Of a stretch of 64,000 bases of DNA, positions 3,401 to 62,129 are shown one piece after another; position 1 is the first letter of the stretch; the number at the start of each line of letters is the position of its first letter. The position numbers were made by a program, and so were the translations under genes. Below the pieces are notes generated by a model. It was not told the DNA's origin. It searched no databases and was given only the letters and a program-made list of their open reading frames with translations. The stretch is from Ascidia mentula. Its lineage: Eukaryota > Chordata > Ascidiacea > Phlebobranchia > Ascidiidae. The DNA is taken from positions 6,399,001 to 6,463,000 of the forward strand of contig OX387202.1 of the NCBI GenBank assembly GCA_947561715.1, in the 5' to 3' direction.

Positions 3401-6400
3401 GACAATTTATTTGCAATATTCACGTTGGATACTTTTCTAATTGCCTTAATTGTGCTTTCTGTAGTGATGGTTTTGCTCATCACTTTGGCGGATCTAACAA
3501 ATTACAAACAGGCTTGGCAAGCTCCCAACCAACTATCCTTTGGTGTCAAAGGCTTTTATTTGTTCCAAATATGTTTTGCTGAGTTTTACAAACAAATCAT
3601 AGCTTATGATTAAAGCCTACGCACAGGCTTGCCATAATTTATAAGGCAGAACTATTTTAATCATTAGATAAAGTATCGCTATAGTCGTTTACACAACAGA
3701 AATGGAAGTATTGCCCTATGTAATTGTTTGAAGTTTGACCTTGAAACAATTTCTCCAATTCTCCTGTTTCCATCAAACGTTGTTACTTATGTACAGGAAG
3801 TTGCACAGATGTCGCTTTATGCTAATTCCATTATTTCATTGGCATCAAATCCAAAAAACGTGGACACGCTTACCCTTAACCCGCCCATCAAACCTATGTT
3901 AGAAAGGCAATTAATTTCATTAGGAACAGTTGATGCTCCGCCAACGCACTGCACCCAGCGGTGTTGAGAAAATGATCTTTGGAAAGCAAACTGAGTTGAG
4001 TCACAGCGAGATGCCACAACTTCATGAGCTTACGTCACCACAGATGCTTTATCTTTAACGGGCGGTATGTAACAGCGGTTTACGTCGCGCGAGGCTGCCG
4101 AATTGTAATTTGCTTGCAACAGTTTACCGCGGGAAGTTCGACACCAGCGTCAAATCGCGCGTTTCCACAACAAACAAAAACTATTGTTTCTTTTCGTGCC
4201 AGGTTTGTGGCCAAATTCCCCACTTTTTAAATAGTGACTAGCTTATCCACGTGTCTTTTGGCGTGACGTCAGTTCACGACAGCTAAAAGCAGGCGAGACA
4301 CAGAAGTCGGGTTTCATCACAACATGTGGTGACGACACGCAAGTTTTTACTCACAGTAAAACCAAATGAGGTACAACATGCCTTCAGCATATATCGCTCC
4401 GAGTTTTTTCGGACATTCTGTTCTGCTTTTATTCTTGTAAATAGATATGGATGGCTTATCAATGGCGTCAACACATTTGTACTTCGAATAAGGGATGTTG
4501 AAATCCAATAATTTTCTTTGACGCATTTAGTCATTCACAATTACTGCAACGAAACATTGCAAACAATTTCATTGGTGTTGTGAACTTTATTTGTTGCGTG
4601 CAACATTTTGTGTTGTTTGTTATGCTTGCGTTGGGCAGTTTACATTTTGCTTTAGTATTGAGATAGTAACGAATTCACGTAGTGCGACCTTTTCCAAACC
4701 CATTCCTCTTCCACTTTTGGTTTTGCATCGTACTGAGGTGGATTGCAGCGTTTGGCAATCTACAAAATGTAAACCACGGCGACGTTAAGTGCGCGGCATG
4801 TAATTTTCTCATTCCAGGCACGCTCCACTGCAGACAGCGGTATTAGGAGAAACGGCGAATGACGTTTTGATGCCGATTTGCCAGCAGGAAGGCTTACCTC
4901 TATATATTATGCGCAAAGGATTTTTTGCGGCCATATTCACTTATTCGCGCATGAGAAGGTTACGGATTGGGAAGTTTTCATCCCAAATCGTGACATAAAT
5001 TTGCTCGGAAGGTTTAGGAATTGGAATTGACGGCGAACGTTGCATACGCAAGGACACCACTATATTTTCGTCACATAAAGTTAAACAAAGTACCACCGCA
5101 TGGGAAAATGTATTTAAGAATTGCGTAGAAATTAGAATATTCACATATACGTTCATTACGTTTTTTTCTCATTTTTAAACACATTATCTCAGAAAGTGTT
5201 ACAAGCGTCATCACTTCAAAATGTTCCAAATCCAAAAACCTCTTTTGTAATTAAATTTTTGAGGTTCAAATGCTACACACGGCACCAACATAGCGTCTGC
5301 AAAACTATCAACGCCTCAAAGCTTTTGGCTGGCTTTGAACCAACAGCAAATTTTCAGAGTTGCCGCAATAGGTTTTGCGCAGCATGGTGTTTCTGATTTA
5401 TCCTATATGCAGTAGGATTATAATTGAGCATTTAGAACAATTGGGGAATGGCTTCTGGAAAGAAGCTACGATGGAAAAACGACAGTTTTGGGTAGATTTT
5501 GTACATTTAGCATCAAATACTCCTACTTTATAACAGGTAAAATATAACACATCGCTTTCCAAACCACATTTGTTGAAACATATGCAAAGTTATATCTGTT
5601 GAGTTTAATACAAGACAATTATATTTCGCTAAAAACACCGTCAGTGTTTTGTTCAAATATAAATTCTTTACCCAAATTATTTTTTTCTTGCACTTATTGA
5701 TATCAGAGGTTGTCCACAATTCTCAACACGTTTTGATGCATTTATTTTTTACATTCAAGTTGATGCATTTGTTTAATAGGGTTAAGTATAAAACGTTAAA
5801 AGTTTCAAAACGGGGTTAAATGTAAAAAAGGAAGTAATAGACGCTCAGAACACCTTCACAACCGGTTAAACAGAATGTGAGAAAAACGCCTTGGAACATG
5901 AGGCAATTTCGACATCGGTTTCCTGAATGATGTGCAATGCAGCGAGTAATAGTAGAGTTAATAAATGGAACCAGTGTTTTTCTTGCATTAAACCCGAGAG
6001 AAGCTGCTTATTCTCACTGCACTACAGACGTAAACACAAATAAACAACACGTGTAATTTCGGGTCTTAAAGTAAGCGGGAAGAAAATACCGTGTTGTTTT
6101 TTAGAATCTTGCATGTTGTAAAGTACGTTGTTGCTAATATTATCAAGGCCAAAATAGTGGCCATCTGTCTGCAGCTTATACACATTATCAAGTCCGTTCA
6201 AGGGATTTTTTTGCCAGAAAATTTTAATGCGGTGCAAGGACAAGAAAAACATCGGCAAACCTGAAGGCAGTTAAATGGCTTTGAAGTGAAAATACGCAGT
6301 ATCTTGTACATTGACCTTTCAAAATGGGTTTGTCTGTGGTAAACATTTGCAGCGCTTTAGCAACACCCTTCCGTTGTTTATGTAATATGACAAATGTAAC

Positions 6401-38219: not shown

Positions 38220-38600
38220 GCCAAGATAATAGCATTCATATACCGCCTGTTGTTAACTTTGCTGCTAAGAAGAATCATCTGCTCAAAAACTGCTGCTAGT
38301 GGTGGACCGAATTTCTGCCTACATAGTATGCCTATCACCGCTGCCGTCCCCACTGAACCGTGCAATCACGTGGCATTCGCCGTAACCAATTCTCCAATGT
38401 CTTCCGGTAATAGGTTACCTCCTAATAGAGCTGCAGTCTTGGTATGTAACTGCATCGCCCACGCTATGTTATACATTTTACTGCAGACGAGGCGCAATTC
38501 GTTTTCAACCTGCTTTTCAAATTTTGTTTCATGGTGTCGGAACTTTTTGATTTCTTTCGTTATGGGTGCTGATTTCGAAAAAAAATTAAAACCATTGTCA
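38220..38600 (-). pseudogene. relic of a companion gene beside the receptor array
   Basis: The minus strand has a frame reading FEKQVENELRLVCSKMYNI and on to LLPEDIGELVTANAT, then a TGA, then further open sequence to NNRRYMNAIILAKG. The segment CSKMYNIAWAMQLHTK aligns with CNQMHAIVWRCRLTQN in the A-type spacers and with GQMYAMVKGLYGYV in the B-type spacers. All three classes share the TGA inside the GAACCGTGCAATCACGTGG block. I read this as remains of a gene duplicated with the receptors. The opposite strand is also partly open, so the coding strand is not certain. Confidence 0.35.
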
Positions 38601-38603
38601 TTT

Positions 38604-38812
38604 TGTATAAGCTGCAGACAGATGGCCACTGTTTCGACCCAAAAGGTCTCATCAGTGCAGCTGGTGTGACTATAAGACGACTTTGCTGACCAAACGGCCA
38701 AGCAAAGACTTCCACTTTGTGGTGACTATACAATCACCGTCATCCGTTGGGCACCAAGGTGCAACCAAAACGGAGAAAACAAGGTGGAAACACTATGGCC
38801 AAGCAAAGCTCA
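38604..38812 (-). mobile_element. hammerhead-ribozyme element, copy H1
   Basis: About 209 bp related to the copies in the receptor spacers but in the opposite orientation. On the minus strand it starts TTTGCTTGGCCATAG and holds a degenerate hammerhead-like fold. It then repeats TTTGCTTGGCC, and ends with the complete ribozyme and TATACA. The internal repetition of TTTGCTTGGCC about 105 nt apart suggests two tandem ribozyme units. There is no protein-coding capacity. No clear target duplication was found. Confidence 0.6.
38610..38662 (-). ncRNA. type I hammerhead ribozyme H1, all core elements intact
   Basis: Read 5' to 3' on the minus strand: stem I AGCUGCA, core CUGAUGA, stem II GACC-UUUUG-GGUC, core GAAA, stem III ACAG-UGGCCAU-CUGU, cleavage nucleotide C (giving GUC), and stem I 3' strand UGCAGCU. 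Stem I pairs perfectly over 7 bp and stems II and III over 4 bp each. All 15 canonical core nucleotides are in place in 53 nt. The family cuts its own RNA 3' of the GUC. Open stem I defines type I, the form found in animal retrozymes and Penelope-like elements. Confidence 0.88.
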
Positions 38813-39099
38813 ACCAATAGTGCCGTCAGGCCCCGTGTCACATTCATATTATTGGCTCCACATTGCTTATCGTTGTCATTTTGTTGAAAACGTGCTCGAT
38901 CAGGACGTAATCGACAAATATTTCCGTGCACACGAAATATTTTCTTGTCAAGAAACGATGATACAGAATTAGGTAAAACAAGGTAATATTTTCAGGCAAC
39001 AATATAATCAAATCAACATTTTGATAAGTTTCGAAACAAAAACATCCAGGTCTGCAATGCACTGTGCTTCTTGTATTGTAGAAGACTGCAAAGTTGACA

Positions 39100-46765: not shown

Positions 46766-46972
46766 TTGCTTGGCCATAGTGTTTCCACCTAGTTTTCTCC
46801 GTAAGGTTGCACCTAGTTAGGTGCCATACGGATGAGGGTGATTGTATAGTCACCACAAAGTGGATGTCTTCGCTTGGCCGTTTGGTCAGCAGAATCGACT
46901 GAAAGTCACACCAGCTGCACTGATGAGACCTTTTAGGTCGAAAGGGTGGCCATCTGTATGCAGCTTACACAA
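46766..46972 (+). mobile_element. hammerhead-ribozyme element, copy H2
   Basis: Same 207-bp layout as H1, on the plus strand, opposite to the receptor genes. TTGCTTGGCC starts it, a degenerate hammerhead-like fold lies at about 46810-46880, and the ribozyme lies at 46913-46965. It was copied along with the receptor pair, since it sits at the same place in all three units. Confidence 0.6.
46913..46965 (+). ncRNA. hammerhead ribozyme H2, stem III weakened
   Basis: Stem I AGCUGCA/UGCAGCU (7 bp), core CUGAUGA, stem II GACC-UUUUA-GGUC and GAAA are intact. Stem III is AGGG against CUGU, with one mismatch and one wobble. The cleavage triplet is GUA rather than GUC, which the family tolerates. Activity is likely reduced. 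Confidence 0.72.
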
Positions 46973-47479
46973 TAATTACTAGTTTCAATAAAATGTAAAC
47001 AAATACTGAATAAGTAGAAAGGAAGCACAATGACACTTACCCCATGTGCACATGTATTGTAGTCGTGGTACTGTGGTAGAGCGACCACTAAACGTGCTCC
47101 TATCATTTCCGTATAAATACTGATAAACAACAACGAATCAACGAGATGTATAGGTAACGTAGTATCGGTATATGTGAAATATAACACAATTCACCTAACT
47201 TGAGATTCGAACAACAGCAACACTTCACCTTCCAGTAGTTCCACTACCTGTGACCCACCAGATAAGGGGATTTCTGTGAGCATATTAGCTGTTACATGGA
47301 ATACTGATTCGACAACGCGTACGGGTTAATCGGTGTCATGCCATTATTTGCATTATAAGCAAAAATATTTGCCTCAAATAAGAAAGCTCACAAACTTCAA
47401 CCGAAATATAAACGTTTAAATGCTTGTGGTATCACGTATATAAGTTGGAAATCGCCACAGCAATTGTAATAGAATGGGG

Positions 47480-54105: not shown

Positions 54106-54312
54106 TTGCTTGGCCATAGTGTTTCCACCTAGTTTTCTCCGTAAGGTTGCACATAGTTAGGTGCCATACGGATGAGGGTGATTGTATAGTCACCACAAAG
54201 TGGATGTCTTGGCTTGGCCGTTTGGTCAGCAGAATCGACTGAAAGTCACACCAGCTGCACTGATGAGACTTTTTAGGTCGAAACAGTGGCCATCTGTCTG
54301 CAGCTTACACAA
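54106..54312 (+). mobile_element. hammerhead-ribozyme element, copy H3
   Basis: Orthologous in position to H2 within the duplicated unit, with the same upstream degenerate fold (about 54150-54220: GGATGA, a stem GGTGA/TCACC, then CAAA). It carries the intact ribozyme at 54253-54305. Plus strand, opposite to the receptors. Confidence 0.6.
54253..54305 (+). ncRNA. type I hammerhead ribozyme H3, intact
   Basis: Stem I AGCUGCA/UGCAGCU, core CUGAUGA, stem II GACU-UUUUA-GGUC (one U-G wobble), GAAA, stem III ACAG-UGGCCAU-CUGU, cleavage triplet GUC. Every conserved position is right, so self-cleavage is expected. Among the three array copies only this one keeps both the perfect stem III and GUC. Confidence 0.88.
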
Positions 54313-54799
54313 TAATTACTAGTTTCAATAAAATGTAAACAAATACTGAATAAGTAGAAAGGAAGCACAATGACACTTACCCCGTGTGCACATGTATTGT
54401 AGTCGTGGTGTGTGGTAGAGCGACCACTAAACGTGCTCCTATCATTTCCGTATAAATACTGATAAACAACAACGAATCAACGAGATGTATAGGTAACGTA
54501 GTATCGGTATATGTGAAATATAACACAATTCACCTAACTTGAGATTCGAACAACAGCAACACTTCACCTTCCAGTAGTTCCACTACCTGTGACCCACCAG
54601 ATAAGGGGATTTCTGTGAGCATATTAGCTGTTACATGGAATACTGATTCGACAACGCGTACGGGTTAATCGGTGTCATGCCATTATTTGCATTATAAGCA
54701 AAAATATTTGCCTCAAATAAGAAAGCTCACAAACTTCAACCGAAATATAAACGTTTAAATGCTTGTGGTATCACGTATATAAGTTGGAAATCGCCACAG

Positions 54800-61434: not shown

Positions 61435-61641
61435 TTGCTTGGCCATCGTGTTTCCACCTTGTTTTCCCCATAAGGTTGCACCTAGTTAGGTGCCCAACGG
61501 ATGACGGTCATTGCATAGTCACCACAAAGTGGAAGTCTTTGCTTGGCCGTTTGGTCAGCAAAGACGTCTGAAAGTCACACCAGCTGCACTGATGAGACCT
61601 TTTAGGTCGAAAGGGTGGCCATCTGTCTGCAGCTTACACAA
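61435..61641 (+). mobile_element. hammerhead-ribozyme element, copy H4
   Basis: Third array copy at the equivalent place upstream of R6. Its upstream half is closer to H1 than H2 and H3 are (GTGCCCAACGGATGACGG, AAGTCTTTGCTTGGCCG), so it may keep the ancestral sequence better. It contains the ribozyme at 61582-61634. Confidence 0.6.
61582..61634 (+). ncRNA. hammerhead ribozyme H4, stem III weakened
   Basis: Stem I, CUGAUGA, stem II GACC-UUUUA-GGUC, GAAA and the GUC triplet are intact. Stem III is AGGG against CUGU as in H2. It probably folds poorly at stem III, with reduced activity. Confidence 0.75.
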
Positions 61642-62129
61642 TAATTATTAGTTTCAATAAAAAGTAAACAAATACTGAATAAGTAGAAAGGAAGCACAAT
61701 GACACTTACCCCGTGTGCACATGTATTGTAGTCGTGGTGTGTGGTAGAGCGACCACTAAACGTGCTCCTATCATTTCCGTATAAATACTGATAAACAACA
61801 ACGAATCAACGAGATGTATAGGTAACGTGGTATCGGTATATGTGAAATATGAATCATTTGAGATGCGGAAAATAGCAGCTCTTCACCTCCCAGTAGTACC
61901 ACTACCTGTGACCCACTAGATAAGGGGATTTCTGCGAGCATATTAGCTGTTACATGGAATACTGATTCGACAACGTGTACAGGTTAATCGGTGTCATTCC
62001 ATTATTTGCATTTCAAGCAAAAATATTTGCCTCAAATAAGAAAGCTCACAAACTTCAACCGAAACATAAACGTTTAAATGCTTGTGGTATCACGTTTATC
62101 AGTTGGAAATCGCCACAGCAATTACAATA

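What the first reader, a model, noticed from the sequence alone, without database searches (positions are those of the whole stretch)
38610..38662. Complete type I hammerhead self-cleaving ribozyme in a dispersed repeat
All conserved hammerhead positions are present on the minus strand: CUGAUGA, GAAA, GUC cleavage triplet, a perfect 7-bp stem I (AGCUGCA/UGCAGCU), 4-bp stem II and 4-bp stem III. Hammerheads of this type drive retrozyme and Penelope-like RNA biology. The copy in opposite orientation to the array copies shows independent insertion.
Basis: partly seen in the sequence, partly recalled or inferred. Interest (0 to 1): 0.9.

Follow-up and report, generated by a model that had tools for sequence, protein, structure and literature searches.

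The report
Sea squirt retrozyme with Penelope-type ends
A self-cutting RNA motif in a sea-squirt genome belongs to a small jumping element whose insertion scars look like those of Penelope-type retrotransposons, which points to the machinery that may move such elements in animals.

Summary
The hammerhead is real: minus strand 38662..38610 has every core position and three stems; a strict descriptor finds it and nothing in 100 shuffles, though no Rfam family reaches its threshold. The core (up to 2 mismatches) occurs 1270 times in this 195.8-Mb genome, whose longest contig matches Ascidia mentula exactly. The repeat unit is 285 nt, often tandem: a metazoan non-LTR retrozyme. New here is the insertion anatomy. 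The window copy (38607-38872) has 12-bp target duplications and two opposed arms. Of 49 insertions read, 32 have two classified ends, and in 31 of these one end is at RNA site A, the other at site B about 29 nt downstream. Targets are cut before GTT on both strands. Resident Penelope-like elements (PLEs) follow the same unequal-end rule (13 of 15 clearly, none with equal ends) with 12-15-bp duplications; one PLE family shares the GTT preference. I infer that PLE-type enzymes insert the retrozyme, priming from both cut strands, probably on a circular RNA. Published work suspected PLEs without a diagnostic feature. Catalysis, circular RNA and the enzyme were not tested.

The parts
38595..38606 (.). 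left copy of the 12-bp target-site duplication TTGTCATTTTGT
38607..38872 (-). retrozyme insertion as a whole; left end = site A, right end = site B
   Evidence: bounds set by the duplications
38607..38842 (-). main arm, antisense to the window, carrying the hammerhead
   Evidence: alignment 38601-38842, minus
38839..38871 (+). short opposed arm (unit positions 14-46) ending at site B
38610..38662 (-). complete type I hammerhead; predicted cut between 38617 and 38616
38873..38884 (.). right copy of the 12-bp target-site duplication
46766..46977 (+). one-armed older copy, right end at site A; hammerhead 46913-46965 with damaged stem III
54106..54317 (+). duplicate of the same insertion; hammerhead 54253-54305 passes the descriptor
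61435..61646 (+). duplicate of the same insertion; hammerhead 61582-61634 with damaged stem III
6146..6184 (+). 39-nt remnant of the unit around the cleavage site

Best explanation
The hammerhead belongs to a 285-nt non-coding retrozyme of Ascidia mentula. Its transcripts are cut by the hammerhead into unit-length RNA that is ligated into a circle (inferred from the biology of the family). A Penelope-like (PLE) enzyme cuts both strands of an A/T-rich target before GTT, about 12-13 bp apart; each freed 3' end primes reverse transcription inside the RNA, one at site A and the other at site B. Going round a circle gives tandem units, and the two antisense cDNAs are joined head to head by short microhomology. 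Shown by sequence: unit, tandem arrays, unequal A/B ends, target duplications, GTT motif, variants shared by the two arms, and the same end rule in resident PLEs. Inferred: self-cleavage, circularity, the enzyme, and that one RNA serves both ends.
For: Exact 285-bp tandem units. 31 of 32 two-ended insertions unequal, p about 8e-9. Duplications scoring 10 or more in 38 of 49 against 2 of 49 with swapped flanks. GTT beyond the duplication on 24 of 60 sides, background 2.4%. Opposed arms 99.3% identical (median) against 97.1% between insertions; 28 of 97 rare variants shared between arms, 2.85 expected. PLEs of the same genome: 13 of 15 resolved insertions with one end at each site, none with equal ends, duplications 12-15 bp; PLE-d GTT on 6 of 12 sides. 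A PLE protein in vitro cuts and extends both strands and starts at two adjacent internal RNA sites, the published tail lying between them (PMC11167929).
Against: No sequence similarity between the retrozyme and PLE start-site regions and no PLE-retrozyme chimera in 49 insertions, so no partner family is proven. PLE-b shows no G after the duplication on 0 of 10 sides, and PLE-a shows G but no GTT. The stem-loop around the start sites is not supported in the retrozyme (z +0.8) and clearly only in one of six PLE examples. Rotifer PLE duplications are 8-10 bp and the lizard PLE prefers ATT. In vitro, PLE insertion did not need hammerhead cleavage, and start sites did not differ between strands. 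In L076, L017 and L023 the arms are no more alike than different insertions. No RNA data.
Confidence: 0.72

Rival explanations
1. Snap-back: one cDNA primed on a single strand folds back and is copied on itself, as proposed for Penelope by self-priming, which makes the inverted arms without a second priming event.
For: Arms are nearly identical and joined at short overlaps; Arkhipova 2013 read inverted PLE units as self-priming.
Against: A folded-back copy would end at the same RNA site on both sides, but 31 of 32 two-ended insertions end at different sites, and the target is cut symmetrically on both strands.
Confidence: 0.1
2. The template is a long linear multi-unit transcript of a tandem array, not a circle; the rest of the PLE-type mechanism is the same.
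For: Tandem arrays exist as sources; Frangieh 2024 proposes multi-copy mRNA as the PLE substrate and saw no need for ribozyme cleavage.
Against: Units within an insertion agree more with each other than with other insertions, as expected from one circle, though a homogeneous array would do the same; many insertions have fewer than two units.
Confidence: 0.3
3. A LINE-type or other non-PLE retrotransposon moves the retrozyme.
For: PMC7229834 names LINEs as possible alongside PLEs; the genome's LINEs were not examined.
Against: Opposed arms, two internal start sites and unequal ends are described for PLEs and found in the resident PLEs; no poly(A) or simple-repeat tail is seen at the retrozyme ends printed.
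Confidence: 0.12
4. A cut-and-paste DNA transposon whose two ends are the A and B sequences, which share ATAAGC as a short inverted repeat.
For: Unequal ends in 31 of 32; ends read TATAAGC inward at A and GATAAGC inward at B.
Against: End positions vary by several bases, 17 of 49 insertions have only one classified end, and length ranges from 74 to 1828 bp with variable inversion points.
Confidence: 0.03

Closest known systems
Metazoan non-LTR retrozymes (Cervera and de la Pena 2020, PMC7229834; parts 2-4 of 6 and passages read)
   Same: Type I hammerhead in tandem non-coding units of a few hundred bp, GC below 50%, no LTR, duplications longer than 4 bp
   Different: Opposed arms and the A/B end rule are not described in the parts read; the word 'inverted' does not occur in that text
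Penelope-like elements (Arkhipova 2013, PMC3846280, passages; Frangieh 2024, PMC11167929, parts 1-2 of 4 read)
   Same: Opposed units, tail of about 30 bp at one of the inverted ends, two internal start sites, both strands cut, hammerheads
   Different: PLEs encode reverse transcriptase and GIY-YIG endonuclease; the retrozyme codes for nothing of the kind, and its start sites lie next to the hammerhead cut
Plant LTR retrozymes (PMC4918200; search listing only, described in PMC7761336, passages)
   Same: Hammerhead-bearing non-autonomous elements with circular RNA
   Different: Type III hammerheads, LTRs, primer binding site and 4-bp duplications, none of which fits here
Hammerhead loci in the sea squirt Didemnum vexillum (PMC8704543, one passage)
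   Same: Type I hammerhead loci in a tunicate
   Different: Nine loci in a list; the passage gives no element structure

Membership tests
Type I hammerhead ribozyme | conserved core, three stems, open end at stem I | tested here: met
Type I hammerhead ribozyme | match to an Rfam hammerhead model at its gathering score | tested here: not met
   best 21.0 bits against 48.5
Type I hammerhead ribozyme | self-cleavage | not testable with these tools
   needs a bench assay
Metazoan non-LTR retrozyme | type I hammerhead in tandem units of about 150-450 bp | tested here: met
   285-bp units
Metazoan non-LTR retrozyme | GC below 50% and no protein-coding region | tested here: met
   GC 47%, longest frame 94 codons
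Metazoan non-LTR retrozyme | target duplications longer than 4 bp | tested here: met
   30 of 44 scored duplications are 12 or 13 bp
Metazoan non-LTR retrozyme | no LTR, primer binding site or polypurine tract | not tested
   none noticed in the units printed; no search made
Metazoan non-LTR retrozyme | expression as circular RNA | not testable with these tools
   no RNA reads at hand
Penelope-like element | ORF with reverse transcriptase and GIY-YIG endonuclease | tested here: not met
   no frame over 94 codons in the unit
Penelope-like element | opposed units with a tail of about 30 bp at one end only | tested here: met
   31 of 32 two-ended insertions; distance A to B 29 nt
Penelope-like element | stem-loop at the start sites | tested here: inconclusive
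   z +0.8 in the retrozyme; -5.7 to +0.5 in six PLE examples

The most novel reading that the evidence does not exclude
Animal retrozymes are satellites of Penelope-like elements: one self-made RNA circle carries two start sites, A and B, and two reverse-transcriptase units, each primed by one of the two cut DNA strands, copy the same circle at once. This would explain why insertions have one A and one B end, nearly identical opposed arms and tandem units, and would be the insertion mode of PLEs too.
Probability: 0.5. Interest if true: 0.78.

Novelty: new member of a known kind. Interest (0 to 1): 0.6.

Why it matters
The review PMC7761336 (passages) states that metazoan retrozyme repeats show no conserved motif that could reveal the autonomous element whose machinery they use, and names PLEs as likely candidates because both carry type I hammerheads and occur together. 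The unequal ends, duplication length and target motif found here are such a diagnostic. They turn the question into a direct test with a PLE protein and give a rule that can be checked in coral, mussel and axolotl genomes. They also bear on how PLEs themselves insert. The searches listed no paper whose title or abstract start reports this for retrozymes; only open-access papers are in that library and most listed papers were not opened.

Tried and rejected
Snap-back alone predicts equal ends; 31 of 32 two-ended copies are unequal. A DNA transposon does not fit variable ends and one-ended copies. Covariation within the family: too little variation. A hairpin pairing hammerhead loop III with the stretch before site B was seen by eye but is not supported by folding. 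Homology of the unit with PLE loci: a retrozyme-like decayed stretch at 70-71% beside a PLE in L030 and L037, which does not identify a partner. Chimeras: the only PLE-locus hit in 49 insertions with 400-bp flanks lies in the right flank of L083, outside the element. A first pass on ends lost alignment pieces and was replaced. One search timed out and was replaced. Eighteen further PLE-family ends (L122-L139) were read one-sided and not used in any count; several (for example L125, L126, L134, L137) show no GT 12-14 nt beyond the end, and L124 shows no recognisable PLE end. Rows dropped before counting: retrozymes - L004 (same left flank as L003), L008 (the window copy again), the third array copy in the window, L022 (cut by the locus edge) and matches spanning under 50 bp; PLEs - C69:12190k (nested in another repeat, duplication unresolved) and L031 (duplication only approximate). 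The literature search with tunicate words listed 10 of 2135 papers, none of the ten containing 'retrozyme', so it does not show absence.

Full report
Observation. The segment 38610-38662 holds a complete type I hammerhead on the minus strand. A strict descriptor (stem I at least 5 bp, stem II 3, stem III 4) finds it and the array copy at 54260, and nothing in 100 dinucleotide shuffles of the window. Rfam gives no match at its thresholds. With relaxed settings the RAGATH-1 hammerhead model aligns in register over 38612-38660 at 20.8 bits (threshold 56.3) and the type III model out of register at 21.0 (threshold 48.5); tandem copies at another locus also match only the type III model, at 20.6 bits. 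The observation therefore rests on descriptor and copy number, not on Rfam. The 27-nt core with up to two mismatches occurs 665 times forward and 605 reverse in the genome, reversed control 0; the 49-nt ribozyme with perfect stems occurs 519 times. Of 139 hammerhead-like 53-mers in the loci read, 101 keep the core and all 15 pairs; 87 are identical, so covariation cannot be tested.

Host. The genome has 195.8 Mb in 79 contigs. Contig C1 is 27,920,005 bases long, exactly the longest scaffold of Ascidia mentula kaAscMent1.1, and the other eight large contigs whose lengths I saw agree with its chromosome table to about 0.01 Mb; the published span is 197.0 Mb (PMC11109543, passages). The Ciona spliced-leader word, recalled from memory, occurs 2157 times, and 54 of the 100 places listed are spaced 719-720 bp in clusters on C1. 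The host is a sea squirt.

Unit and arrays. Elsewhere the hammerhead sits in tandem units of 285 bp: 5.9 copies at C1:3.33 Mb, 3.6 by the repeat finder at C1:17.58 Mb. The unit has 47% GC and no frame over 94 codons. As a circle it folds better than 100 shuffles, z -2.8, 67% paired. These are published features of metazoan non-LTR retrozymes (PMC7229834, parts 2-4 of 6 read).

Insertion anatomy. I read 49 insertions, of about 1270 copies of the core, from the window, L001-L028 and L074-L093. They came from search hits, some chosen because hits of opposite orientation lay close together, so the share of inverted forms is biased; the pairing of end types was not selected. Unit position 1 is the first base after the cut. 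In the classes A and B the RNA's 3' direction faces outward; A means an end at positions up to 32 (after GCTTATACACAAA), B at 33-60 (after CATTGCTTATC). Classes: AB 20, BA 11, AA 1, one classified end only 17 (xA 5, Ax 5, xB 5, Bx 2). Thus 31 of 32 two-ended insertions are unequal, one-sided p about 8e-9. The exception, L001, has no clean duplication. Duplications score 10 or more in 38 of 49, against 2 of 49 when flanks are swapped between insertions; 30 of the 44 lengths listed are 12 or 13 bp. The window copy is A on the left and B on the right, with TTGTCATTTTGT at 38595-38606 and 38873-38884. The array copies have only an A end, and no duplication was found for them; they share flanks, so one older insertion was multiplied with the GPCR unit.

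Target. With A on the left, 30 insertions show AAC before the duplication and GTT after it. GTT lies outward on 24 of 60 sides, against 2.4% of 1500 background positions. Both strands are therefore cut before GTT, 12-13 bp apart, as a symmetric pair of nucleases would do.

Arms. Opposed arms of one insertion are 99.3% identical (median of 70 unit pairs in 21 insertions), units in the same direction 99.6% (87 pairs), different insertions 97.1% (6659 pairs). In L076, L017 and L023 the arms are no closer than insertions are to each other, and in L018 some pairs are far apart. Of 97 rare variants in minus arms, 28 recur in the plus arm of the same insertion, 2.85 expected; 24 of the unshared ones are in L018. 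Arm junctions overlap by 2 nt or more in 16 of 33, 16% at random; 10 of 33 have extra bases, which in L011, L020 and L087 look like copies of neighbouring unit sequence (read by eye).

Resident Penelope-like elements. At least 121 GIY-YIG matches were scored (150 of 382 candidates). Open frames in L041 and L042 carry GIY-YIG and RVT_1; that in L034 carries GIY-YIG and RVT_1 below its cut-off. PLE loci carry hammerhead-like motifs near their 3' ends (recognised by eye). Fifteen PLE insertions of four families (my labels: PLE-a 3, PLE-b 5, PLE-d 6, PLE-f 1) have a resolved duplication of 12-15 bp. In 13 one end lies at an earlier and one at a later RNA site; in C73:2196k the earlier-site end falls about 10 nt short; in C1:13532k it is truncated further; none has equal ends (read by eye). 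The two sites are 27-38 nt apart in the five PLE examples measured, 29 in the retrozyme. The base after the duplication is G on 18 of 20 sides in PLE-a, -d and -f and on 0 of 10 in PLE-b; GTT is found on 6 of 12 sides in PLE-d, 1 of 2 in PLE-f and none of 6 in PLE-a. PLE-d is thus the best candidate partner, but no sequence similarity to the retrozyme was found, and it was not searched in the whole genome.

Mechanism. Frangieh 2024 (parts 1-2 of 4 read) showed in vitro that a PLE protein cuts and extends both strands and starts at two adjacent sites inside the RNA, the known tail being the stretch between them; it also found an ATT cut preference, no strand difference in start sites, and no need for hammerhead cleavage. 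Arkhipova 2013 (passages) reported opposed units, a 31-bp tail at one inverted end and duplications of 8-10 bp in a rotifer PLE, and favoured self-priming. The retrozyme has the same kind of ends, so I infer PLE-type insertion. Unequal ends with alike arms suggest that one RNA, probably the circle, is copied from both sites at once; this step is inference. Copying by fold-back would give equal ends and is disfavoured.

Novelty. The element is a new member of the metazoan retrozyme kind. How it inserts bears on a point left open in PMC7229834 and PMC7761336. The searches listed no report of it, within an open-access library and mostly from titles and abstract starts.

Noticed in passing
window 39704-64000: Tandem array of rhodopsin-type GPCR genes (PF00001 in the three frames tested), two alternating versions in a repeat of about 7.3 kb.
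   Followed up: partly
G000 contig C1, 15.24-15.30 Mb; L140: Arrays spaced 719-720 bp of the Ciona-type spliced-leader word, 2157 exact occurrences in the genome; in L140 the word is followed by GTGGAG, like a splice donor.
   Followed up: no
L030 933-1038 and L037 933-1038: Decayed retrozyme-like stretch with a broken hammerhead core (about 70% identical) beside a PLE end; perhaps an older or second retrozyme family.
   Followed up: no
L031 and L040 3' ends: Paired stretches seem to enclose the earlier start site in several PLE families; folding supports this strongly only in L031 (z -5.7).
   Followed up: partly
285-nt unit, sense strand: The unit length is a multiple of three and one sense frame has one stop per turn, leaving 94 codons; probably chance.
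   Followed up: no
window 44538, 51881, 59220: Weak mir-316 model matches (22.5-23.5 bits, threshold 80) recurring in the GPCR repeat; most likely chance.
   Followed up: no
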